DNA of 64,000 nucleotides from Pseudanabaena sp. M085S1SP2A07QC (GTDB lineage Bacteria; Cyanobacteriota; Cyanobacteriia; Pseudanabaenales; Pseudanabaenaceae). The position numbers and the translations under genes are program-made. Below the pieces are notes generated by a model, which saw only the letters and a list, made by a program, of their open reading frames with translations, did not search any database and was not told the DNA's origin. Each line of letters begins with the position of its first letter. The stretch's first letter is position 1. Of this stretch, positions 7,062-56,147 are shown piece by piece. Where the stretch lies: the NCBI GenBank assembly GCA_020404895.1, contig JADBWK010000064.1:1-64000 (forward strand), given 5' to 3'.

Positions 7062-7140
7062 GTCATAATTGTTGTTATTGTTTTCGGTGATTCTTTTTGG
7101 TTCTCATGCAAGAAGAGAGGCAACTCCTGAATCAGATATT

Positions 7141-7233
7141 TAGGACTTACGCAAAAGAACTGGCCGTAGGGGCAATTCATGAATTGACCCTACGGCAAAA
7201 TGAGGCTTTCAGGGCATTTTTGCGTAAGTCCTA
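7141..7233. mobile_element. MITE A copy 1 (TIR taggacttacgcaaaa)
   Basis: Terminal inverted repeats taggacttacgcaaaa/ttttgcgtaagtccta and internal gtaggggcaattcatgaattg palindrome. Confidence 0.85.
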
Positions 7234-7307
7234 TTTATTTTTTATACTTTAACCTCATCTGGACTCTTTCCTCGAAAGACTCTTCTGTTATGCCTTTCAA
7301 AGATTTA

Positions 7308-18754: not shown

Positions 18755-19969
18755 ATGATTGCTATGACAGGTTCCTTGCCTAACTCAGACCTTGTGTCTA
18801 ACAACTTGACGGACGGACAAGTAGTGAGGAATGCCACATTACATATCCTTTTAGCTGCTATGCGCGTCATGAGTCGTTCTACGGGAGTGATCCGCGTAGA
18901 GACAAAATATCATCGGTGGAAATTATTACTTACGGGTGGAGGACTAGTATTAGCAGAAGAAGAAGGGCAAGTCATGCCCACATTGGTTCGCAAATACAAC
19001 AGCAAAGGCATTAATTTTTCGCGTATTCCTGAATGGGAGCAGCGTCAAAATAATCGACCTTACTGTTATCCTTTTGTGAGCAATGTTTACAAAAAACATC
19101 CCGAAATTACTAAGGAAGTTTTAAAAGAAGTTATCTTAGAAAATTTGTTGTCTTTGCATTTAGAGGATGGATTCTCTTTTGTATGGAAGCCCGCCGAAGA
19201 GCTGCAAATTAATCTACCTGTTTGGCAGTTATCGGTAATCGAAAATAGTATCGCCAATGAAGTAAGGCAATGGCAAAAATTTGATTGTGTAAAACATCCT
19301 TACCAATTAGTGCAACTTATTGATGCGGCTAATTTACTGGCAAGAGTGGGCAACGATAATTTCCCGCTCTTTGCTAAGGTGACCACGGGGCAATATCGAA
19401 TCTGTGCGATCGCCGATACTTTTAAACAGCCGATTTATCGCACAGCCTTATTGCTAGACAAGTTAGCACAAAAAAATATTGTGTCAATTGTGCCACTGGA
19501 AGAGCGGAAGTCTGACAGTAATATTGGCGTTCGGCAAAATGTATCTGCACCAAAAAATGTCAAAGATGAACCTAGGGTTTTTATCGTTGATGACTCACCT
19601 GTTTTATTGCAACAAATGCAAAGACTGTTAATTAGTTGGGGTTATCAAGTTGATTTTACTGATGATGCTGAAGCAGCTACTGACAGAATCTTAGAATACA
19701 AGCCGACTATTGTTTTTATTGATATAAATATGCCAAGTCTAAATGGCTTTGATTTGATCAAACAAATTCGTCGTCAACGGGAATTAGCTTCGTTATCTTT
19801 GGTATTAGTTACTGCTGAGAACAGTATGACTAATAACTTTAGGGCAAGATGGGCAAATTGTCGTTTCCTAGCCAAGCCAAGATCATCATCTGACACTCCA
19901 AAATTTCGCGACGAATTACGTAACTTATTAAGGGAGCTTGCGCCTTTGTCAACAGACACCCTAGTCTAG
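18755..19969 (+). CDS. PatA/PixG-type response regulator (DUF4388 + REC)
   Basis: C-terminal REC domain RVFIVDDSPVLLQQMQRLL...KPTIVFIDINMPSLNGFDLIKQIR; PatA-like N-terminal region. Confidence 0.85.
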   Translation: MIAMTGSLPNSDLVSNNLTDGQVVRNATLHILLAAMRVMSRSTGVIRVETKYHRWKLLLTGGGLVLAEEEGQVMPTLVRKYNSKGINFSRIPEWEQRQNNRPYCYPFVSNVYKKHPEITKEVLKEVILENLLSLHLEDGFSFVWKPAEELQINLPVWQLSVIENSIANEVRQWQKFDCVKHPYQLVQLIDAANLLARVGNDNFPLFAKVTTGQYRICAIADTFKQPIYRTALLLDKLAQKNIVSIVPLEERKSDSNIGVRQNVSAPKNVKDEPRVFIVDDSPVLLQQMQRLLISWGYQVDFTDDAEAATDRILEYKPTIVFIDINMPSLNGFDLIKQIRRQRELASLSLVLVTAENSMTNNFRARWANCRFLAKPRSSSDTPKFRDELRNLLRELAPLSTDTLV

Positions 19970-21288: not shown

Positions 21289-24200
21289 ATGCATATGGCA
21301 AGCACATCTAAAAGAACCCCAGCGACTTCTTCAGGCAAGAGCAATCAGGCATCTTCAAAGCGATCGCCTAAATCGCCAAACGCCCCCAAACCTAATAAGT
21401 CAAGAGGCTCAATGGGACTGGGATTGCTGCTGATTGCGATCGGCACATCGCTAATAGGCTTAGGTGGCCTAGGATATTGGTTTTATCAAGAATTACTAAG
21501 TAGTGCTCGACGAGAAGTTGATACATCGGCTGAAGCGCAGGCTCGTCAAATCGACGCTAGGCTCTCAGATGTTAAGACGACAGTTGATGAAGTTGCAGGT
21601 GGGGCAAAGATCCTATCCCAGCAACCTTCAAAGCCCAAAGGCTATGAACCATATCAACGTCTGATTGTCGATGGATTACAAAACAAGAAATCCATCGCAG
21701 GTATGGGGGTTGCCTCAAATGACAACTTACTATTTGCTCCAGCTAAGCCTCTTGTCCCCTATGTATGGAGGGAACAGTCAGGCTTAAAGACTGAAACGGC
21801 TGGTCAAAAGCTGGTAGCCCCAAATGATAAATTTTTGTCTGGAGATCGCCCTGATATTCAAAAAGCGTCATTTTATCAAGACACTCTTAAGGGCCAGTCC
21901 GCTTGGTCACAGCCCTATACCGCATTGGGTAAGACATTAATCACTTACAGTGCTCCCATCAGCGATGGACAGAAAGTAGTGGGGATTGTCAATGCCGATG
22001 CGATCGCTAGTGAGCTTTTGTCATTAGTAGATACTGCTTCATATCAAGATACTAGCAATGAAAGCAAGATTGGCTTTGTCGTGGCTAATAGCAGTGGCAA
22101 AGTAGTTACGGCTTCCTATAAGTTTCAGGCAACGCAAACCCAAAACCCAGCGATCGCTGAGGCTCTCACGAGCCTCGTTCAACAAGCTAAAGCTAAACCG
22201 TCAGGAATTGTCCAAACTGGTGGAAATCTCTGGGCATACCGCAAAATCGAAGGCAGCGATTTGCTATTTGCAGCCCAGTTGCCCGAATCAGAAATCACCA
22301 ATAAGCTAATGCTTCCAGTCGGTGTTGCGGCTGTTAGTATCAGTGCGATTTTGGCGATCGCCATATTATTATTCGTCAACAGGCTCAAAAATCGACTTAA
22401 GCCCCTTACCGAAGAATGCGATCGCTACTTGAGTCAGCTAGGAAATTCAGGTGTAAATATTGCACCAGGTAAAGATGAAATTGATCATCTTGGAATCTCG
22501 CTTAAGAATACCTTCCAACAGGTAAAAAACAATGAAATTAGTTTGCGTAACGGATTGAACCAAACATTATCATCATCGAATGATGATATATCGGCAGTAG
22601 AACAGCTCCAGCAAAATTTCGTAGAAACGGAGTTGATGGAGGCTGAAGTGGGCAACCTATTAGATGTTGTCTCATCTATGGAAGAGGGTGATCTCACAAT
22701 TGAGGCTCAAGTAAGTGATCGCGCTACAGGACTGGTCGCCGACACCCTTAACCGTCTTTGCGAAAAACTCGTAGAGATCATCTCCAGTGTCTTAGGTACA
22801 GCCAAACAGGTAGTCCAAGGTGCAGCCGATCTTGAAGAATTAGCCAAAACTGTCGTGTTAAACACCGCCGAACAAGCACAGTCAGTTGCGCAAGGACAAG
22901 CTCTAACGGAACAAGTTGCTGCTATCGCTGAGAGATCTTCAGCACAGGTAAACGATGCGAACCAATCACTTCAGGAAGTACGCGACACAGTAGCGTCTGG
23001 ACAAATGGCGATCATTGCCCTGACTGACAGTATTAGCGTCTTACAAACGGGTTCAGCCCAAATCGTCCAACGCATGAAAACATTGGGCGAATTCGTGGGT
23101 CTTGCAGAGCAATTTGTCCAAGATCAAGGTCAAATCGCTTCTTTGACTCAAGTTCTGGCGCTCAATGCTACCCTTGTCGCCGCTCGTGCTGCTGAACAAA
23201 AAGATCCTAAGCAATTTGCTGGTGTAGCTCGTGAATTTGAGTCGATCGCAGGGCAAGTTAATGATTTGGCAACTCAAACCAATGATGGCTTGACGGTGCT
23301 GCAACAGCGTACATCTCAAATCCAAACCGTAGTAACTGCGATCGATGCTGAAGTTCAGAATTTAAGTGGACTTGTTGCTGGTTTTACATCAGGAGTAGAG
23401 TCATCGCAATCTGCGTTCAATAGTATTCAAATAGCTACAGAAGAAGTTGTCCAAATTGGACAAGCTATTACTGAATCTAGTACCGAAATTGCTGAAGCAG
23501 CAGGCTCTACAGCTAGCTATATGAGTGAAATTGCTCAGTTAGCTGATCGCACAGCCGACCTGACTCGATCGGCTCGACAACAAGCTGAAACGATGGGAAA
23601 TCAAGCCCAGCGACTATTGCAAGGCATTCAGTTCTTCCGTCTGCCCGAATCATCTGGAGGGCTAACCCATAAGACATCTGTCAATAGTTTGTTGGATGTC
23701 TCAACAGAGTCAAGCAATACCGAGACTAATAATTTGGGTGTAGTTGTACCTGCGATCGCGGCAGCAACAGCGGTAACAGCAGTCAGCTTTTCTCCATCAG
23801 AATCATCTTTAGCAAATACATATGAAGCTGAGGAAGATAACACAGCCACCGATAATAAATATCTTGAAAATCTACTTGATGACGGTGTTAGCAGCGATCT
23901 GATCGATGATAATGCTGTTGAATCTCTGAAAGAACAAAGCTTTGATTCTATTTCAGAAAATTTCATGTCTGGAGGTATTACAGACAAGCAAAATCCAGAT
24001 TCAGCGACCTATCCTAACCTCACAGATATCTCTCTAATCGAAGAATCTCTCCTTGCGGATCTTAAACATGAAGTCTATGACGACGATAGTTCGTTTGACG
24101 AATTTTCTCCCCTTGACGATACTGAGGCAACTCTAAAAAATCAGCTAGATGGAGTGAATGAATCTTCGATCATTGAAGCTTCAAGTGATCATCTGATTGT

Positions 24201-26787
24201 TTCTGCTACATCTTCATTTTCAGAAAATATAGCTGGTGGCACTGTGTCACCACTTGCTGAAGATGCAAATCTGAACTTACCAACTTTTGTTGATTTTTCA
24301 ATTCCAGATATGGATGATGACTTCATCATCCCCAAAATGAATATAGAATCTACCCTAGACAATTCCAATTCATTTTTTGATAGCGATAATTCAATACTAG
24401 CTCCTGAAGTTAATCAAGCAGATTTTGATCCACTTGCTATGGATACTCAAACAGCAGAGGATGCCGATGAAGCTGCGATCGCAAATAGTGACAATGTATT
24501 TGAGTTAACTGAATCACAAGATTACGATCAATTCACAACCAACAACGTGATTAATGAGTCATTAGAAGAATCTGTAGAAAGTTCTTCCAATGAAGTTTTT
24601 GGCGATTCTTTTGAGATGCCTTTTGATGAGTCATTATTTGATGAAGACTTGGATGAAGCTGTTAATGATTCGGTGCATCACCAATTTGCTGTTGCTGAAG
24701 ATATTGAGGAGCCGATCCCAGAGCCCGTAAATAATGAATTAAATTATGAACTATCTGACCAAGATGTCAACAATTCATTTGATTTTGGACAACCAGTAGA
24801 TATTTATTCAAATAATCTTGAGAATCAAGGCGAATTATCTGAATTTCCTGCTCAAATCCCCGATATTTATCTTGAGGATTCTTCAGATGATGAATTTTCA
24901 GAAGTGTTTAATTTTGAAATCGGTGATGACCCAATAACAAAAGATTTATCTGAGCAGCCATCTACAGAGTTCACCTTTGAAATTGATGAAAGCTTATCGA
25001 CGGAATCATCTGATTTAGGGGCTGATTCAAAACCATTTGATTTTTCTACAGATCTTCAAGAAGCTTCTTTTGCTCCAGAAATAGCGATCGCATCAGAAAC
25101 AGATATACAATTATCGCCAGTGCTAGATCTATACGATCAGCAGTTAGGATATATTTCTGATGAACTGTCTGAAGATTTCTCTTTTGAGATAGAAGAGGAT
25201 CTGTCAACTGACCAAATGGACTTAGGTAATGACGACTTTGATTCAGCATTTACAATGTCACAACCTGAAATCGAGGACATTAGCTTATCATCCTTTCCAG
25301 AAAGTGAATCAGAGCTAGCTTTTCCTTCATTGATTGATGAAATTGAAAATCCAGAAGCTCAGTCTTCGGAAGCAATCTGGGAAACAGACGATATCGCCTC
25401 AGTTTTTGGCAAAATCCCGAACTTTCAGGAAGATTTGGCTGAAGATTCTTCATTTATAATTGATAATCTTAATACAACTTTTGTCCTACCAGACTTGTCG
25501 AGTGTGGCAGAGACTAGTGATGCATTGATGGGTGAAGAATTTAACTTTGACATAACTGATGACGATTCCAACTTTAATATTTTCACAAATCCTTTGGAAA
25601 GAGTTGTCGAGTATTTAGTGAGTGACTCAGGGCTTAATAACAGTGAAGATCCCCCCGACTCTGTCTCTGATGCAATCTCGCAAACTGACTTGATCGCACC
25701 AGATTTAGAAGAGATTGGAGTCCTTGAAGAAAATTTGGCTGAAAGTCAGCCTTCTTCTGTGGCTGACAGCTTTAGTTCGGTCTTTGCTCTGCCAGACTTA
25801 TCGCTGATGGAAGAATCTGACGAAGCATTAATGGATGAAGCCTTTGACTTTGGCATGTCTGATGACCATGATAATGCGGATAATTTTGGCGTTTCAATAA
25901 ATTCATTGGAGGAAGAACCTGCTATAGCTTCTGATGAAGATTTGCTGAATGAATCAGGCGTAGATTTATCCTCAGTATTTAATGACAATTTAGAGCAAGG
26001 TGCAGAATTAAGCTATCAAGAATTTATCAATAATTCTGAATCCAATTTTGATATTGATGATAATACCTCAACCTTCGCAGAGCTAACTGGAGGCTTGGAA
26101 TCGGAGGACGAATCGATCAAGTTTAGTGAAATCATGGATGCAGGAAACTTCACAGACGACGCTTTAGAAGAGTCAGTTATATTTGAGGCGATCGCAGATG
26201 AAACAAACGATCTAGATTTAGAATCTTCAGCAGATTCTCTAGACTTGGGTATTTCTCAGACTAGTAACTTGGGGTTAGACTCGGAATTTATGGAGTCCTT
26301 TCCCGATCTTTCTCTGGATTTTTCAGATAATTGGCTTGATAAGGTGGATGAAGATAGTGATCTAAGTAGTGCAAAATTTGCTGACTCAGATGACGATATA
26401 TCTATTGGATATCCATCTGAAGATGAAGTTAAGACTATGCCAGATGGCGAAATCTATGGGTTTGCTGACAATCTGCTGGACAGTCTCATGGATGAAGCTG
26501 ATGAAGAGTTTGCAAGTCTATCGATGGATTTACCAGACTTGCAAACATTACCTTACTTGTCTAACTTTAACGAACATTCTGTAGAGACTGAAGATAGCAA
26601 TAGTGAATTAGAAAGTGATATTGAATTTGATTTCTCTGCATTTGATTTGCCGATAGAAGATTCGATTAATTCAGCTAGAGCCGAAATCGAAGATTTTCTG
26701 TCAGGTAGTTTAGACATTGAGGAAGATAGAATTCAGAAAAAGAATCCTCCTAAGCTAGTTGAAACAGACAACTCAGGCTCAGTCTAA
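21289..26787 (+). CDS. PixJ/PilJ-like methyl-accepting chemotaxis protein with a long acidic C-terminal tail
   Basis: Two TM segments, HAMP-like and MCP signalling region LTQVLALNATLVAARAAEQKDPKQFAGVAREFESIAGQV; residues from about 800 to 1832 are D/E/S/F-rich. Confidence 0.85.
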   Translation: MHMASTSKRTPATSSGKSNQASSKRSPKSPNAPKPNKSRGSMGLGLLLIAIGTSLIGLGGLGYWFYQELLSSARREVDTSAEAQARQIDARLSDVKTTVDEVAGGAKILSQQPSKPKGYEPYQRLIVDGLQNKKSIAGMGVASNDNLLFAPAKPLVPYVWREQSGLKTETAGQKLVAPNDKFLSGDRPDIQKASFYQDTLKGQSAWSQPYTALGKTLITYSAPISDGQKVVGIVNADAIASELLSLVDTASYQDTSNESKIGFVVANSSGKVVTASYKFQATQTQNPAIAEALTSLVQQAKAKPSGIVQTGGNLWAYRKIEGSDLLFAAQLPESEITNKLMLPVGVAAVSISAILAIAILLFVNRLKNRLKPLTEECDRYLSQLGNSGVNIAPGKDEIDHLGISLKNTFQQVKNNEISLRNGLNQTLSSSNDDISAVEQLQQNFVETELMEAEVGNLLDVVSSMEEGDLTIEAQVSDRATGLVADTLNRLCEKLVEIISSVLGTAKQVVQGAADLEELAKTVVLNTAEQAQSVAQGQALTEQVAAIAERSSAQVNDANQSLQEVRDTVASGQMAIIALTDSISVLQTGSAQIVQRMKTLGEFVGLAEQFVQDQGQIASLTQVLALNATLVAARAAEQKDPKQFAGVAREFESIAGQVNDLATQTNDGLTVLQQRTSQIQTVVTAIDAEVQNLSGLVAGFTSGVESSQSAFNSIQIATEEVVQIGQAITESSTEIAEAAGSTASYMSEIAQLADRTADLTRSARQQAETMGNQAQRLLQGIQFFRLPESSGGLTHKTSVNSLLDVSTESSNTETNNLGVVVPAIAAATAVTAVSFSPSESSLANTYEAEEDNTATDNKYLENLLDDGVSSDLIDDNAVESLKEQSFDSISENFMSGGITDKQNPDSATYPNLTDISLIEESLLADLKHEVYDDDSSFDEFSPLDDTEATLKNQLDGVNESSIIEASSDHLIVSATSSFSENIAGGTVSPLAEDANLNLPTFVDFSIPDMDDDFIIPKMNIESTLDNSNSFFDSDNSILAPEVNQADFDPLAMDTQTAEDADEAAIANSDNVFELTESQDYDQFTTNNVINESLEESVESSSNEVFGDSFEMPFDESLFDEDLDEAVNDSVHHQFAVAEDIEEPIPEPVNNELNYELSDQDVNNSFDFGQPVDIYSNNLENQGELSEFPAQIPDIYLEDSSDDEFSEVFNFEIGDDPITKDLSEQPSTEFTFEIDESLSTESSDLGADSKPFDFSTDLQEASFAPEIAIASETDIQLSPVLDLYDQQLGYISDELSEDFSFEIEEDLSTDQMDLGNDDFDSAFTMSQPEIEDISLSSFPESESELAFPSLIDEIENPEAQSSEAIWETDDIASVFGKIPNFQEDLAEDSSFIIDNLNTTFVLPDLSSVAETSDALMGEEFNFDITDDDSNFNIFTNPLERVVEYLVSDSGLNNSEDPPDSVSDAISQTDLIAPDLEEIGVLEENLAESQPSSVADSFSSVFALPDLSLMEESDEALMDEAFDFGMSDDHDNADNFGVSINSLEEEPAIASDEDLLNESGVDLSSVFNDNLEQGAELSYQEFINNSESNFDIDDNTSTFAELTGGLESEDESIKFSEIMDAGNFTDDALEESVIFEAIADETNDLDLESSADSLDLGISQTSNLGLDSEFMESFPDLSLDFSDNWLDKVDEDSDLSSAKFADSDDDISIGYPSEDEVKTMPDGEIYGFADNLLDSLMDEADEEFASLSMDLPDLQTLPYLSNFNEHSVETEDSNSELESDIEFDFSAFDLPIEDSINSARAEIEDFLSGSLDIEEDRIQKKNPPKLVETDNSGSV

Positions 26788-26838
26788 CTAAAAGTAAGAG
26801 AACGCGAAAAGCGCGTTCTCTTACTTTTAGTTAGACTG
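26780..26838. terminator. 27-bp-arm palindrome spanning the stop codons of both convergent genes
   Basis: cagtctaactaaaagtaagagaacgcg-aaaag-cgcgttctcttacttttagttagactg. Confidence 0.92.
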
Positions 26839-27798
26839 TATAGAAACAAATCCTAGTCTTTGAACAATCTGCTGCCCTTGAGTCGAAAGTGCAAACTCAA
26901 TAAATTGCTTAGAGACAGGACTAGTGGTCTTTTTTACACCTAAAAACAGACTGCGGTTAATTGGATATTTACCAGCTTTAACTGCATTAGTATCTGTAGG
27001 CAGAACTCCATCGATCGCAATAATTCTCACAATTTCTTGCTTCTCTACCTGTGAAACTGTGGCATAACTGATCCCGTTATCACCTAGATCTCGGAGAATT
27101 GCTGTTGTTTCGTCTTGTTTCCATGTAATAAAGTTAGGGCTATCTGGCGCGAAACTTTGACCGAGTAAAACTATATCTTGAAAAGCTTCTCTAGTTCCGC
27201 TTGTGGTAGCGCGATTAATCACTCTAATTGGTTGATTTGCCCCGCCAACCTGTGACCAGTTAGTAATTTTACCCAGATAGATATCTCGTACTTGATCCTT
27301 TGTCAAATTACCCTTAAATGGATTATTTATACCAACTACTAATGCGATCGAATCTTTAGCGATCGGCACTAATTGTATACCTGCTTGGGCTTCGGCAGCT
27401 TTGAGCGGACGAGAAGTCGCTGCGATCGCGATGCTACCATCAATGAGATTTTTCAATCCCTGATTTGAACCAGTTGGATTACCATCAGGAACTCCATAGG
27501 CGCTCGGTATGTTTGGATTAACTTGGCTAAAGTCATTACGCAGGGCTTTAATCAGAGCAACCATTGCCGTACTGCCATCTATTCCCAAAATACTAGGATT
27601 GGGCAGAGATGTATCAAGGTTTAAGTTTGTTGATGTTATTACGGGCGGGGTTGGTTGTGCTGATGAATCTGGTGTTGCCGTGGTAGCTGGTACTACTGTT
27701 GATTTTTGTTGTGAAAAAAACCAGTAGCCTCCGCCAGCAATCCCTGCTGTGACTAGCATCGACAATACTAAAACTGTAGTTTCTTTACCCTGTGACAT
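26827..27798 (-). CDS. Phosphate ABC transporter substrate-binding (PstS-like) protein
   Basis: IYLGKITNWSQVGGANQPIRVINRATTSGTREAFQ. Confidence 0.88.
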   Translation of the reverse strand: MSQGKETTVLVLSMLVTAGIAGGGYWFFSQQKSTVVPATTATPDSSAQPTPPVITSTNLNLDTSLPNPSILGIDGSTAMVALIKALRNDFSQVNPNIPSAYGVPDGNPTGSNQGLKNLIDGSIAIAATSRPLKAAEAQAGIQLVPIAKDSIALVVGINNPFKGNLTKDQVRDIYLGKITNWSQVGGANQPIRVINRATTSGTREAFQDIVLLGQSFAPDSPNFITWKQDETTAILRDLGDNGISYATVSQVEKQEIVRIIAIDGVLPTDTNAVKAGKYPINRSLFLGVKKTTSPVSKQFIEFALSTQGQQIVQRLGFVSIQSN

Positions 27799-27903
27799 AG
27801 ATCTAAATCTCTAAAACATCTGGCACAACTGTAGCGTAAATTCTGATTGAAGTTTAAAAAGAGGAAAAATAGCATAAAGTAAAACCTTTTAGATTTTTCA
27901 ACA

Positions 27904-29148
27904 CTATGCACTATTTTGTTCAATACTATTTAATAAATCAATTAGGCTTTGTCCAATAGCATAGGCTAGATTAACAGGAACAGCATTACCAATTTGTTTG
28001 TATTGACTTGTCAATGCTCCAGCAAATTCCCATTCATCAGGAAAAGTTTGAATTCTCGCATATTCCCTTACAGTCAGAGGTCGTGTCTCTTCGGGATGAC
28101 ATCTTTCTGTTTGTTTTTGTGCGGGAGAACAGGTCAGAGTTAAACTTGGTTGATCCCAAGCCAGTCTTCTTGCAATTCCTGTTTTACCACCCCCCAAAAA
28201 ATAACTTTTTTGCATGTATTCTCTTTGCAAATCATCTGGTAAATCCCGCCAATAACCACCTTGAGGTATAAGGTCTAATATTTCCTTTTTCTTTTTGGCG
28301 TAAGTTTGACCTTGGGAAATTGGTACATCTGTTGGATACAATTCACCAGCTTTGAGAGCATCTCTAAGCACCATAATTTTTGTGTAAGGTGTGGGCCATT
28401 TAAAATCAGCAAACTCAACTAAATCATTTCTAATGCCAATTAAAAATAAACGTTCTCTCTTTTGAGGAACTCGATAAAAGATAGCTTTTAAAACTTGTGG
28501 TTCAATCAGTGTATAACCTAGTTCATGAATAATAGATTTCATTGCGGCTAAAGTTCGACCATCATCATGCTTTAATAATCCGCGTACATTTTCACCTAAA
28601 AATACTTTGGGTTGTAATTCTTTAATAGCTCTAGCAAATTCAAAAAATAATGTGCCTCTCGCATCTTCAAATCCCAGTTTATTTCCTGCATAAGAAAATG
28701 CTTGACAAGGAAATCCGCCTGCTAGCAAATCTACATTAGCAAATTCTTTGAAATCTACATTTTTAACATCACCTTCAATTACATGCCAATTTGGACGATT
28801 AATGCGTAAAGTGTTACAAGCATTTTTATCGAATTCATTCAAAGCAATCGCATTAAAACCTGCACATTCTAGCCCGACAGCAAGTCCACCAGCACCAGCA
28901 AAAAGCTCTATTGAATTAAAAGTTCTAATAGATTTAAAAATGGTTGTGTTGCCTTCTAGATTTTGAGAAAAGATATTTCTAATTTCTTCAAAATGAAGTA
29001 ACTCAGACACTTTATATTCTTTTTTCTTAGTAATTGAATTGAATACAGGTATTATTTTTTGATTTTTCTCCCATTTCAATAATGTCGATTTTGAAACCGA
29101 TGTGATATCTGCCAAGAGTTCTGCTGGAATAAATTGCGTATCAAACAT
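27904..29148 (-). CDS. DNA (cytosine-5) methyltransferase with N-terminal HTH
   Basis: ELFAGAGGLAVGLECAGF, DLLAGGFPCQAFSYAG, GENVRGLLKHD, RERLFLIGIR, QIGNAVPVNLA. Confidence 0.95.
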   Translation of the reverse strand: MFDTQFIPAELLADITSVSKSTLLKWEKNQKIIPVFNSITKKKEYKVSELLHFEEIRNIFSQNLEGNTTIFKSIRTFNSIELFAGAGGLAVGLECAGFNAIALNEFDKNACNTLRINRPNWHVIEGDVKNVDFKEFANVDLLAGGFPCQAFSYAGNKLGFEDARGTLFFEFARAIKELQPKVFLGENVRGLLKHDDGRTLAAMKSIIHELGYTLIEPQVLKAIFYRVPQKRERLFLIGIRNDLVEFADFKWPTPYTKIMVLRDALKAGELYPTDVPISQGQTYAKKKKEILDLIPQGGYWRDLPDDLQREYMQKSYFLGGGKTGIARRLAWDQPSLTLTCSPAQKQTERCHPEETRPLTVREYARIQTFPDEWEFAGALTSQYKQIGNAVPVNLAYAIGQSLIDLLNSIEQNSA

Positions 29149-29884
29149 GAAAGCTGTCGAAACCTGCGTATTTTTTAAAAGATAGTAAAAATAGACTTTT
29201 TAATAAATTGTTGTCAATTGCTTTGAGTTCTTGAATAACACAATTGGATTCTTTCTCAAAATCACTACTGTTTACAATATCATCAATCACTAGCGGTAAA
29301 TTTTCGCATAATTTTTTAAAAGCTGTGCGATCACCTGTGACTAGCTCATAAAATTTATCGATAGAAACTCGACGAATTCGTTGATCCGACATGGGAACAC
29401 CGTCTAAGCTAATTTGCCAAGCTATATCTTGACTCTTCGTTGCGATCACCTCTACCAAAATACACTTAGCTCTTTCATTAGATAATAGAGTCTTCATCAT
29501 CCTCATATATGTTTTCTGTGAGGATGATGAATTCATGGTATTGTGCTTGTTTTTCATTTCTACATAACAGCAAGTCTCTTCATTAACTATGTCATATCCT
29601 GAAATTGGTATATGCCATCCACTACCGATATAGCGAAATATATTTTGATGAAAATATCCGATATGATTTGTATTCGATTTGTCTACTTGTCTGACAACTT
29701 CATATTCGATTACATCATCAATACTTTTACCATAAACTTTAGAATCAAATGTCAACTTAATGGGATCTATTAAATTTTTATTAAACTCCAATAAGTTAAC
29801 TTTAAACCTATATTTATCAACAGTTTCTTTGACATGATTATAAAAGTCCTCATTGTTAATAAAACCAAGATTATAATCTCTCAT
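29141..29884 (-). CDS. Type II restriction endonuclease, Eco47II-like
   Basis: HIGYFHQNIFRYIGSGWHIP...YVEMKNKHNTMNSSSSQKTYM; overlaps the methyltransferase start. Confidence 0.8.
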   Translation of the reverse strand: MRDYNLGFINNEDFYNHVKETVDKYRFKVNLLEFNKNLIDPIKLTFDSKVYGKSIDDVIEYEVVRQVDKSNTNHIGYFHQNIFRYIGSGWHIPISGYDIVNEETCCYVEMKNKHNTMNSSSSQKTYMRMMKTLLSNERAKCILVEVIATKSQDIAWQISLDGVPMSDQRIRRVSIDKFYELVTGDRTAFKKLCENLPLVIDDIVNSSDFEKESNCVIQELKAIDNNLLKSLFLLSFKKYAGFDSFHV

Positions 29885-30026
29885 TTTTTTAATTCTAAAG
29901 AAATTTGGTGATCCGGCTCTTAATTCTAAGCTATTTTGAAATAATGCTACTCTGAACTTTTCTTTGGGAAATTCAAAACCTCTATGAGCTAAGATCTATA
30001 CTAGCAGTAGTAACCATAGACGTGAC

Positions 30027-37447: not shown

Positions 37448-37453
<6 letters not shown>
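36176..37453 (+). CDS. UDP-glucuronosyl/glucosyltransferase-like glycosyltransferase (MGT/CrtX-like)
   Basis: VPATGHLNPMITLGYELKKRGH; THAGLNTVLESLSCGVPMVAIPIANDQPGVASRI. Confidence 0.88.
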
Positions 37454-37859
<406 letters not shown>

Positions 37860-38805: not shown

Positions 38806-38834
38806 GGATTAATTTAATATATTTTTGAATATTA

Positions 38835-38926
38835 TAGGACTTACGCAAAAATGCTTGAAACCTGCATTTTATCGTAGGGGCAATTCATGAATTGCCCCTA
38901 CATTTCGTCCTTTTGCGTAAGTCCTA
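38835..38926. mobile_element. MITE A copy 2, 5-bp TSD tatta
   Basis: taggacttacgcaaaa...ttttgcgtaagtccta flanked by tatta on both sides. Confidence 0.9.
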
Positions 38927-39132
38927 TATTATATCGATCTGCGCCGCAAATCTCTTGCTATAGCCACTTGTTTATTGGAAATGACTGCACTACGCACCGC
39001 CATCTACTTTTTACAGTTTTCAGTTTGCCATGAACTGAATCAACGTAACTGATAATGTTACAAGAAGATTGTAGTGCTGATTTTTATCTCCAAGCATAGG
39101 CATTTTGTACCGATATTACACAGAAAAACATT

Positions 39133-39581: not shown

Positions 39582-39616
39582 AATAAAGAAGGCGGGCAAA
39601 GCCCGCCTTCTTTATT
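39582..39616. terminator. Perfect 16-bp-arm palindrome between convergent genes, containing the downstream gene's stop
   Basis: aataaagaaggcgggc-aaa-gcccgccttctttatt. Confidence 0.9.
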
Positions 39617-42099: not shown

Positions 42100-43035
42100 A
42101 TGCCGAAAAAAGTCTTTATAACAGGTGCTAGTGGTTGTGTTGGTCATTATTTGATCGAGATGCTTTTAGCCAAAACTGATTACGAGCTATATCTGCTAGT
42201 GCGCGATCGCAGCAAATTGCAAATTGATATTAGCGATCTCCCTAACGTGCATGTCATCGAAGATCCGATGCAGAATATCGGTAATCACAAAGACTTACTT
42301 CGCACGATGGAATTTGTTGTCAGTACCGCTGCTGCTTGGGGGGGAGAAGAAGCTTTTGTGGTTAATCGTGATAAAACCATTGAGCTGTTTTCGATGCTCG
42401 ACCCGCAGGTGTGCGAACGTGCTATCTATTTCTCCACAGCCAGTATTCTGGATTCCCATAATCAGATTATTCCTGAGGCAGGGCAAATTGGCACACCATA
42501 TATTGCCTCGAAACATGCTTGTCTTGAAGCTGTAGAAAATTCAATAATTCGCGATCGCTTGATTACCATTTTCCCTACTCTAGTTTTTGGTGGTGCTCCT
42601 GACAAACCCTATTCCCATCTTTCCAAAGGACTGAAGGATATTCTTAAATATGTACCCTATGCAAGATTCTTAAAGGCTGATGGTAGTTTCCATTTTGTCC
42701 ATGCGATCGATATTGCACAAGTGGTTACTCATCTCCTGACTGCGCCTTCAGTGCCATCGTCTCCTGCTCGTCTAGTTTTAGGAATGCAGAAATTGACTGC
42801 TGAAGGCCTAGTTGCTCAATTCTGTGAATATTTGAATTTAAAGGTTGGCTGGCAATTGAGTTTAAATCCATTCCTAATCGATGCCGTGATCAAATTATTC
42901 CGTATCGAAGTCGCCGCATGGGATCGCTTTTGTATTGCCCAACGCCATTTCACCTATGACATCGTTGCTCCAGAAACCTTCGGTTTGACGTCAAAATATC
43001 CCCGCCTAGCAAATTTACTTGCAGAAGTTAAATAA
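42100..43035 (+). CDS. NAD(P)-dependent epimerase/reductase (SDR extended)
   Basis: VFITGASGCVGHYLIEMLL; YIASKHACLE. Confidence 0.88.
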   Translation: MPKKVFITGASGCVGHYLIEMLLAKTDYELYLLVRDRSKLQIDISDLPNVHVIEDPMQNIGNHKDLLRTMEFVVSTAAAWGGEEAFVVNRDKTIELFSMLDPQVCERAIYFSTASILDSHNQIIPEAGQIGTPYIASKHACLEAVENSIIRDRLITIFPTLVFGGAPDKPYSHLSKGLKDILKYVPYARFLKADGSFHFVHAIDIAQVVTHLLTAPSVPSSPARLVLGMQKLTAEGLVAQFCEYLNLKVGWQLSLNPFLIDAVIKLFRIEVAAWDRFCIAQRHFTYDIVAPETFGLTSKYPRLANLLAEVK

Positions 43036-43077
43036 ATAAAAAAGCTTCCCTTTGGGAAGCTTTTTTATTTATTTAAC
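43027..43077. terminator. Perfect 24-bp-arm palindrome containing both convergent stop codons
   Basis: gttaaataaataaaaaagcttccc-ttt-gggaagcttttttatttatttaac. Confidence 0.93.
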
Positions 43078-47953: not shown

Positions 47954-48047
47954 TAGGACTTACGCAACAATACTCTGAAACCCGCATTTCATAGTAGGGG
48001 CAATTCATGAATTGCCCCTACTATGAAATGATTTTGCGTAAGTCCTA
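47954..48047. mobile_element. MITE A copy 3, 5-bp TSD aatag
   Basis: taggacttacgcaa...ttttgcgtaagtccta flanked by aatag on both sides. Confidence 0.9.
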
Positions 48048-51067: not shown

Positions 51068-51109
51068 AAAAAATGTAGGGGCAATTCATGAATTGCCCCT
51101 ACATTTTTT
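51068..51109. terminator. Perfect 42-bp palindrome derived from the MITE A core, between convergent ctpA and thiO
   Basis: aaaaaatgtaggggcaattca|tgaattgcccctacatttttt. Confidence 0.85.
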
Positions 51110-55794: not shown

Positions 55795-55847
55795 AAAAAG
55801 CAAAAACAAAAGGCGGCGCTTAGTACCGCCTTTTGTTTTTGCTTTTT
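55795..55847. repeat. 22-bp-arm palindrome
   Basis: aaaaagcaaaaacaaaaggcgg-cgcttagta-ccgccttttgtttttgcttttt. Confidence 0.9.
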
Positions 55848-55888
55848 TACTGAAAGAGTTGCTTTGGGTTTGAGCGCTCTGGAATTGC

Positions 55889-55987
55889 TGTAACCCCAAA
55901 ACACAAAATGGTGTTGCCATTTTGTGTTTTGGGGTTACAGGGTTTGGTTTTTAATTCACAGAATTGTTGTCACACTTTTGTGAATTA
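55889..55987. repeat. Composite double-hairpin repeat, copy 3
   Basis: tgtaaccccaaaacacaaaatgg...ccattttgtgttttggggttaca then ttttaattcacagaattgttgtcacacttttgtgaatta. Confidence 0.9.
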
Positions 55988-56017
55988 TAGCAACGTAAGA
56001 GATAGATAGGACAATTC

Positions 56018-56064
56018 AAAACCCAAAAGATGGCAGAGCTTCGCTCTGCCATCTTTTGGGTTTT
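56018..56064. repeat. Perfect 22-bp-arm palindrome
   Basis: aaaacccaaaagatggcagagc-ttc-gctctgccatcttttgggtttt. Confidence 0.92.
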
Positions 56065-56104
56065 ATGTCCTAAGCAAAGCTTACATTGCTATAGTATAAG
56101 TAAT

Positions 56105-56147
56105 CAATATTAGAGAGGTGACGCTTCGCGTCACCTCTCTAATATTG
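56105..56147. repeat. Perfect 20-bp-arm palindrome
   Basis: caatattagagaggtgacgc-ttc-gcgtcacctctctaatattg. Confidence 0.92.

What the first reader, a model, noticed from the sequence alone, without database searches (positions are those of the whole stretch)
26780..26838. One palindrome supplies the last codons and stops of two convergent genes (pixJ-like and pstS-like)
The 27-bp arms contain cagtctaactaa. On the + strand this is read as tca-gtc-taa (S V stop). On the - strand it is read in a different frame as cag-tct-aac-taa (Q S N stop). The C-terminal coding end of one gene is therefore an inverted copy of the other's.
Basis: seen in the sequence. Interest (0 to 1): 0.78.

Follow-up and report, generated by a model that had tools for sequence, protein, structure and literature searches.

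The report
Hairpin copies one gene's end onto another
Between two head-on genes in a cyanobacterium (Pseudanabaena), a perfect DNA hairpin contains the ends of both genes; comparison with relatives indicates that a small copying error mirrored the end of one gene into the other, adding two amino acids, and at least two other gene pairs of this genome show the same kind of event.

Summary
A 27-bp perfect inverted repeat (26780-26838, 5-nt loop) contains the last codons and stops of both convergent genes: an MCP-like gene ending S-V-stop and a PstS-like gene ending Q-S-N-stop, read in different frames. Relatives show which end is old. S-V-stop is ancestral (Salubria-1, UWO311, G017). PstS orthologues in the closest relatives stop where the window reads on, mostly ...Q-stop (CAG TAG). 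In the closest relative, Salubria-1, the same hairpin has a 4x4 internal loop. The window differs by four adjacent bases in the PstS arm (AGCC to CTAA) that exactly mirror the MCP arm. They erase the TAG, and reading continues two codons (S, N) to an in-frame TAA already there. This is the only run of four consecutive mismatches in 9,747 aligned bases outside one hypervariable block. Best explanation: template-switch (quasipalindrome) arm homogenisation of an intergenic hairpin, probably a bidirectional terminator. The pattern recurs: 5 of 35 sampled convergent pairs of this genome have perfect hairpins spanning both stops, against 0 of 70 in other cyanobacteria and E. coli. In two further cases one end is conserved and the other rewritten. 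The mechanism is known; its repeated rewriting of convergent bacterial gene ends appears to be a new variant.

The parts
26780..26806 (+). Left arm of the palindrome; holds the last codons and stop of the MCP-like gene (..CA GTC TAA); donor arm for the outer part
   Evidence: S-V-stop conserved in Salubria-1, UWO311 and G017
26807..26811 (.). Loop aaaag
26812..26838 (-). Right arm; read on the - strand it holds the PstS-like end CAG TCT AAC TAA
26831..26834 (-). Four-base patch (AGCC to CTAA on the - strand) that completes the palindrome, removes the ancestral TAG and creates codons S-N
   Evidence: Window versus Salubria-1 alignment; only run of 4 consecutive mismatches outside the 19.10-19.95 kb block
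26784..26784 (+). T to C in the MCP arm (GTT to GTC, synonymous Val), matched by G in the PstS arm
21289..26787 (+). MCP-like (PDC sensor plus MCP signalling) gene, 1832 aa
26827..27798 (-). PstS-like phosphate/solute-binding protein gene, 323 aa
37448..37496 (.). Second palindrome (23-bp arms) containing both stops of convergent genes; left end derived, right (WPPG-stop) end conserved
43027..43077 (.). Third palindrome (24-bp arms) containing both stops; conserved in UWO311 with one compensatory pair change
39582..39616 (.). Hairpin (16-bp arms) containing the stop of the right convergent gene only

Best explanation
The element is an intergenic stem-loop between convergent genes, most likely a bidirectional transcription terminator (inferred). 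It existed in the ancestor as an imperfect hairpin: inner stem CTAAAAGTAAGAGAACGCG, outer CAGT/ACTG pairs, and a 4x4 internal loop between them. In the window's lineage, DNA synthesis in the PstS arm switched template to the MCP arm across that loop (template-switch, or quasipalindrome-correction, mutation). Four mirrored bases were copied and the stem became perfect. The PstS stop TAG was lost, so the protein now runs two residues (S, N) further to a pre-existing in-frame TAA. Shown here: both sequence states, their polarity, the clustering of the change, and recurrence elsewhere. Inferred: a single template-switch event, the order of the synonymous T-to-C change in the donor arm, and the terminator role.
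For: Salubria-1 (L064) has CAGTTTAACTAAAAGTAAGAGAACGCG on the MCP side and CAGTAGCCCTAAAAGTAAGAGAACGCG on the PstS side; the window's arms are identical to each other. PstS orthologues end at this point, mostly Q-stop, in the closest relatives. The patch is the only run of 4 mismatches in 9,747 sites at 3.7% divergence outside one block. Such a run is expected about 1e-4 times in the palindrome, and about 1e-6 times with all four bases matching the opposite arm. Same signature elsewhere: G000:C1:14992-15050, where the left end PESA-stop (CCTGAATCAGCATAA, with minor variation) is conserved in the left-gene relatives shown and the right gene is rewritten to QKA-stop in G000 and G008 (QKV-stop in G017); and window 37448-37496, where the right end PPG-stop is conserved in every orthologue shown and the left end changed to RIG-stop in G000 and G005. 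Orthologous hairpins carry exactly inverted loops, TTT/AAA, TTA/TAA and ATCC/GGAT, a footprint described for template switching (PMC8794818, PMC8604942). The hairpin sits between two convergent stops and is very stable on both strands.
Against: The final state of this palindrome is seen in one assembly only. The donor arm also changed (T to C), so two events are needed, or one event followed by a single-site conversion. Independent substitutions favoured by selection for pairing are not formally excluded. The terminator scan found no canonical stem plus U-tract, because the U-rich stretch lies inside the stem. No transcript data were available.
Confidence: 0.82

Rival explanations
1. Selection on a bidirectional terminator: independent point mutations that improve pairing were fixed one after another, with no templated copying.
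For: Terminator stems are maintained by compensatory substitutions, and bidirectional ones are more constrained, in Bacillus cereus (PMC5381666). Paired changes are seen here too, e.g. A-T to G-C at 43027-43077.
Against: Four adjacent changes at 3.7% divergence with no other such run outside one block. Early steps would break the PstS stop for little stem gain. Loop inversions give no pairing benefit.
Confidence: 0.12
2. Chance: convergent genes happen to end in similar letters and the terminator lies over them.
For: The outer CAGT/ACTG match was already present in relatives. At 43027 both genes ancestrally end in GTTAA-like letters.
Against: 27 perfect pairs, z -10.7; 5 of 35 convergent pairs with both stops in a perfect hairpin; derived ends match the conserved end of the partner gene.
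Confidence: 0.02
3. Assembly or sequencing artefact that folded one arm onto the other in this assembly.
For: G000 is a 190-contig assembly and the exact final state is in no other genome held.
Against: Both frames stay open to plausible stops. Equivalent palindromes are shared by independent genomes (G000 and G017, with G008 imperfect; G000 and G005).
Confidence: 0.04

Closest known systems
Template-switch / quasipalindrome-correction mutation (Ripley model; yeast coding genes PMC8604942; RNA hairpins PMC8794818; E. coli reporters PMC7202029)
   Same: Imperfect inverted repeat becomes perfect through clustered changes matching the opposite arm; loop inversions; multi-codon effect in one step
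   Different: Here the repeat lies between two convergent bacterial genes and contains both stops, so one gene's end is written into the other's C-terminus; it recurs at several gene pairs of one genome
Bidirectional intrinsic terminators between convergent genes (e.g. B. cereus, PMC5381666)
   Same: Single stem-loop between convergent genes, symmetric A-rich/T-rich flanks around a G+C core, compensatory changes
   Different: Perfect arms of 23-28 bp reach through both stop codons into the coding sequence; no canonical unpaired U-tract
Coding palindromes in Nematomorpha mitochondria (PMC6649704, abstract only read)
   Same: Perfect inverted repeats overlapping protein-coding sequence on both arms
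   Different: There the repeats lie inside genes and are far longer (up to 284 bp); here they join the ends of two convergent bacterial genes around a likely terminator

Membership tests
Template-switch (quasipalindrome correction) mutation | Ancestral imperfect inverted repeat at the same place | tested here: met
   Salubria-1 and UWO311 carry the imperfect hairpin
Template-switch (quasipalindrome correction) mutation | Clustered substitutions, all complementary to the other arm | tested here: met
   Four of four adjacent bases, the only such run outside one block
Template-switch (quasipalindrome correction) mutation | Donor arm unchanged during the event | tested here: inconclusive
   Donor arm differs from Salubria-1 by one synonymous T to C; order unknown
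Template-switch (quasipalindrome correction) mutation | Spacer/loop inversions at related hairpins | tested here: met
   TTT/AAA, TTA/TAA, ATCC/GGAT among orthologous hairpins, though not at the target itself
Template-switch (quasipalindrome correction) mutation | Single event demonstrated in a known pedigree | not testable with these tools
   Needs mutation accumulation or dense strain sampling
Bidirectional intrinsic terminator | Stable stem-loop at both stops of convergent genes | tested here: met
Bidirectional intrinsic terminator | G+C-rich stem followed by an unpaired U-tract on each strand | tested here: not met
   Scan found none; the U-rich stretch is inside the extended stem
Bidirectional intrinsic terminator | Transcripts end there in both directions | not testable with these tools
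   No RNA data
Dispersed repeat / MITE / REP element | Several copies in the genome | tested here: not met
   17-nt arm core found only at this place in 26 genomes

The most novel reading that the evidence does not exclude
In Pseudanabaena, hairpins at gene ends are hot spots of templated arm copying: stems grow outward through the stop codons and repeatedly overwrite the C-terminus of one convergent gene with the mirror image of its neighbour's end, making this a standing source of C-terminal change in the genus.
Probability: 0.5. Interest if true: 0.68.

Novelty: new variant of a known kind. Interest (0 to 1): 0.5.

Why it matters
It is a natural case in which one short mutation both perfects an RNA hairpin and rewrites a protein end, with ancestor, donor and recipient all identifiable. 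It bears on how long perfect terminator stems arise without passing through many weak intermediates. The genus offers several parallel cases, so the rate and direction of such copying could be measured across strains.

Tried and rejected
Dispersed repeat element: rejected, since the arm core occurs only here. Full copying of the end including the TAA: rejected, since the TAA and the CAG already existed in Salubria-1. The L093 palindrome (G000:C2:18861-18913, both genes ending GAATTCGCATAA) as a further polarised case: not used, because the right gene also ends EFA-stop in G003 and G006 without the full palindrome, so direction is unresolved. At 43027 both ends were similar ancestrally, so direction is unresolved. 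One search by locus handle was not possible. The five-way MAFFT alignment did not align the distant relatives well across the hairpin and was used only for the three closest. Literature searches on Pseudanabaena palindromes, and on template switching at terminators of convergent genes, found nothing on this arrangement in the held library.

Full report
Observation. It folds at -44.5 kcal/mol on + and -44.1 on - (z -10.7 and -11.5). The + gene (21289-26787) ends TCA GTC TAA and the - gene (26827-27798) ends CAG TCT AAC TAA. Both final stops and last codons lie in the arms, in different frames. Pfam places the + protein with MCP-like sensors (the signalling domain is below its cut-off) and the - protein with PBP_like_2 phosphate-binding-type proteins.

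Origin of the DNA. Relatives identify the genus as Pseudanabaena. The window lies in contig C152 of a 190-contig, 4.81-Mb genome. The closest relative found is Pseudanabaena sp. Salubria-1 (L064), about 95-97% identical over the neighbourhood; the next are UWO311 (G008, L063) and G017.

Which end is ancestral. PstS-like orthologues in the genus end at a stop directly after the position of the window's Q codon, for example ...SVQ-stop...PVQ-stop...PMQ-stop, or ...SVN-stop in G017. Only the window reads on to S-N. The MCP-like gene ends TCA GTT TAA in UWO311, G017 and Salubria-1, the same S-V-stop as the window's TCA GTC TAA. So the MCP end is old and the PstS end is new.

The intermediate. In Salubria-1 the MCP arm is CAGTTTAACTAAAAGTAAGAGAACGCG. 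The PstS arm, read on its own strand, is CAGTAGCCCTAAAAGTAAGAGAACGCG. The hairpin therefore already had the outer CAGT pairs and the whole inner stem, with a 4x4 internal loop between them. The window differs in that loop by AGCC to CTAA in the PstS arm and T to C in the MCP arm, and the stem becomes perfect. The ancestral PstS reading CAG TAG CCC TAA becomes CAG TCT AAC TAA: the TAG disappears and the next in-frame TAA, already there, takes over. Only the two added codons are mirror-copied material.

Is the cluster unusual? Over 11,403 aligned bases against Salubria-1, one block at about 19.15-19.89 kb is hypervariable. Outside it (19.10-19.95 kb excluded) there are 357 mismatches in 9,747 bases and exactly one run of four, at 26831-26834, inside the palindrome. 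Random placement gives a run of four anywhere in 49 of 2,000 shuffles. The expectation inside the 59-nt palindrome is 1e-4, and about 1e-6 if all four must match the opposite arm. These figures assume independent sites and are approximate.

Recurrence. In the window alone, hairpins at 37448-37496 and 43027-43077 also contain both stops of convergent genes, and one at 39582-39616 contains one of them. In 350 kb sampled from this genome, 20 of 35 convergent pairs have a hairpin with arms of at least 12 bp (median 20.5) and in 5 of 35 it contains both stops. The figures for both stops are 1 of 17 in G002, 0 of 22 in G022, 1 of 8 in the UWO311 contig (an orthologue of 43027) and 0 of 5 in G017. 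In three genomes of other cyanobacterial families the count is 0 of 47 and in 200 kb of E. coli MG1655 0 of 23, with no hairpin that long in these pairs. The sampled stretches include the window that prompted the question, so the 5 of 35 is not an unbiased rate (2 of the 5 lie outside the window's contig). Gene calls here are simple ORF picks, so these are estimates.

Polarity in other cases. At G000:C1:14992-15050 the left gene ends CCTGAATCAGCATAA (PESA-stop, with minor variation) in the left-gene relatives shown. The right gene ends LTQLQKA-stop in G000 and G008 (LTQLQKV-stop in G017), with its TGA inside the inverted copy of the left end, while other relatives end LTQLQKSKN-stop, LTQLQKVER-stop, LTQLQHK-stop or LTQFQTAL-stop. 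At window 37448-37496 the right gene ends WPPG-stop in all orthologues shown. The left gene ends ...GKPVARIG-stop in G000 and G005 with GGATAATG mirrored from the right end, while others end ...VLRN-stop...RIS-stop...RNH-stop or ...NRG-stop. Two further palindromes (G000:C2:18861-18913 and window 43027-43077) could not be polarised.

Loop inversions. Orthologous hairpins differ by exact inversion of the loop: TTT versus AAA at several loci, TTA versus TAA, and ATCC versus GGAT between L188 and L196. Inversion of the spacer leaves the arms unchanged and gives no pairing advantage, so selection on stem strength does not predict it. It is a described footprint of template switching (PMC8794818, PMC8604942).

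Mechanism. The best reading is template-switch arm homogenisation of an intergenic stem-loop. The nascent strand copying the PstS arm paired with, or moved onto, the MCP arm and returned, writing four mirrored bases. The T-to-C change in the donor arm probably came first, being synonymous and then copied, but the order is not shown. The stem-loop itself is probably a bidirectional terminator by position, stability and symmetric A/T-rich flanks. That is inference: the pattern scan did not score it, probably because the U-rich part lies in the stem, and no transcript data exist.

Known and new. Arm homogenisation by template switching is established in phage, E. coli and yeast, including coding genes, and compensatory change in bidirectional terminators is established in B. 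cereus (PMC8604942, PMC7202029, PMC5381666). I found no report in the held library of such events rewriting the C-terminus of convergent bacterial genes, or of a genus where hairpins regularly span both stops; that search is limited to open-licence papers. I therefore file it as a new variant of a known kind.

Limits. The target's final state rests on one assembly. The other cases shared between independent genomes show that the phenomenon is not an assembly error, but do not verify this site.

Noticed in passing
window 27904-29884: An Eco47II-type restriction endonuclease gene and a C5-cytosine methyltransferase gene lie between the PstS-like gene and the next gene; Salubria-1 and UWO311 lack them there (alignment jumps from 27799 to 29990), so this looks like a recent insertion of a restriction-modification pair.
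   Followed up: partly
window 19150-19890: Block highly diverged from Salubria-1 and UWO311 inside an otherwise 96-97% (Salubria-1) identical region; possibly recombination or a variable domain.
   Followed up: no
window 7163-7196, 38874-38901, 47985-48030, 51068-51109: Dispersed palindrome around GTAGGGGCAATTCATGAATTGCCCCTAC, at 7136-7238 and 38829-38932 inside longer inverted repeats with AGGACTTACGCAAAA; looks like a mobile miniature element.
   Followed up: no
window 55795-56147: Four long perfect hairpins in a row (arms 20-24 bp) between divergent genes, where terminators are not expected.
   Followed up: no
L093:18861-18913 (G000:C2): Perfect palindrome in which both convergent genes end with the identical 12 letters GAATTCGCATAA in the same frame; in G022, G012, G005 and G039 the mirrored copy of the left end persists although the right gene is not directly adjacent.
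   Followed up: partly
L188 and L196 (orthologous hairpins of G014 and G009): Loops ATCC and GGAT are exact inversions of one another with unchanged arms.
   Followed up: partly
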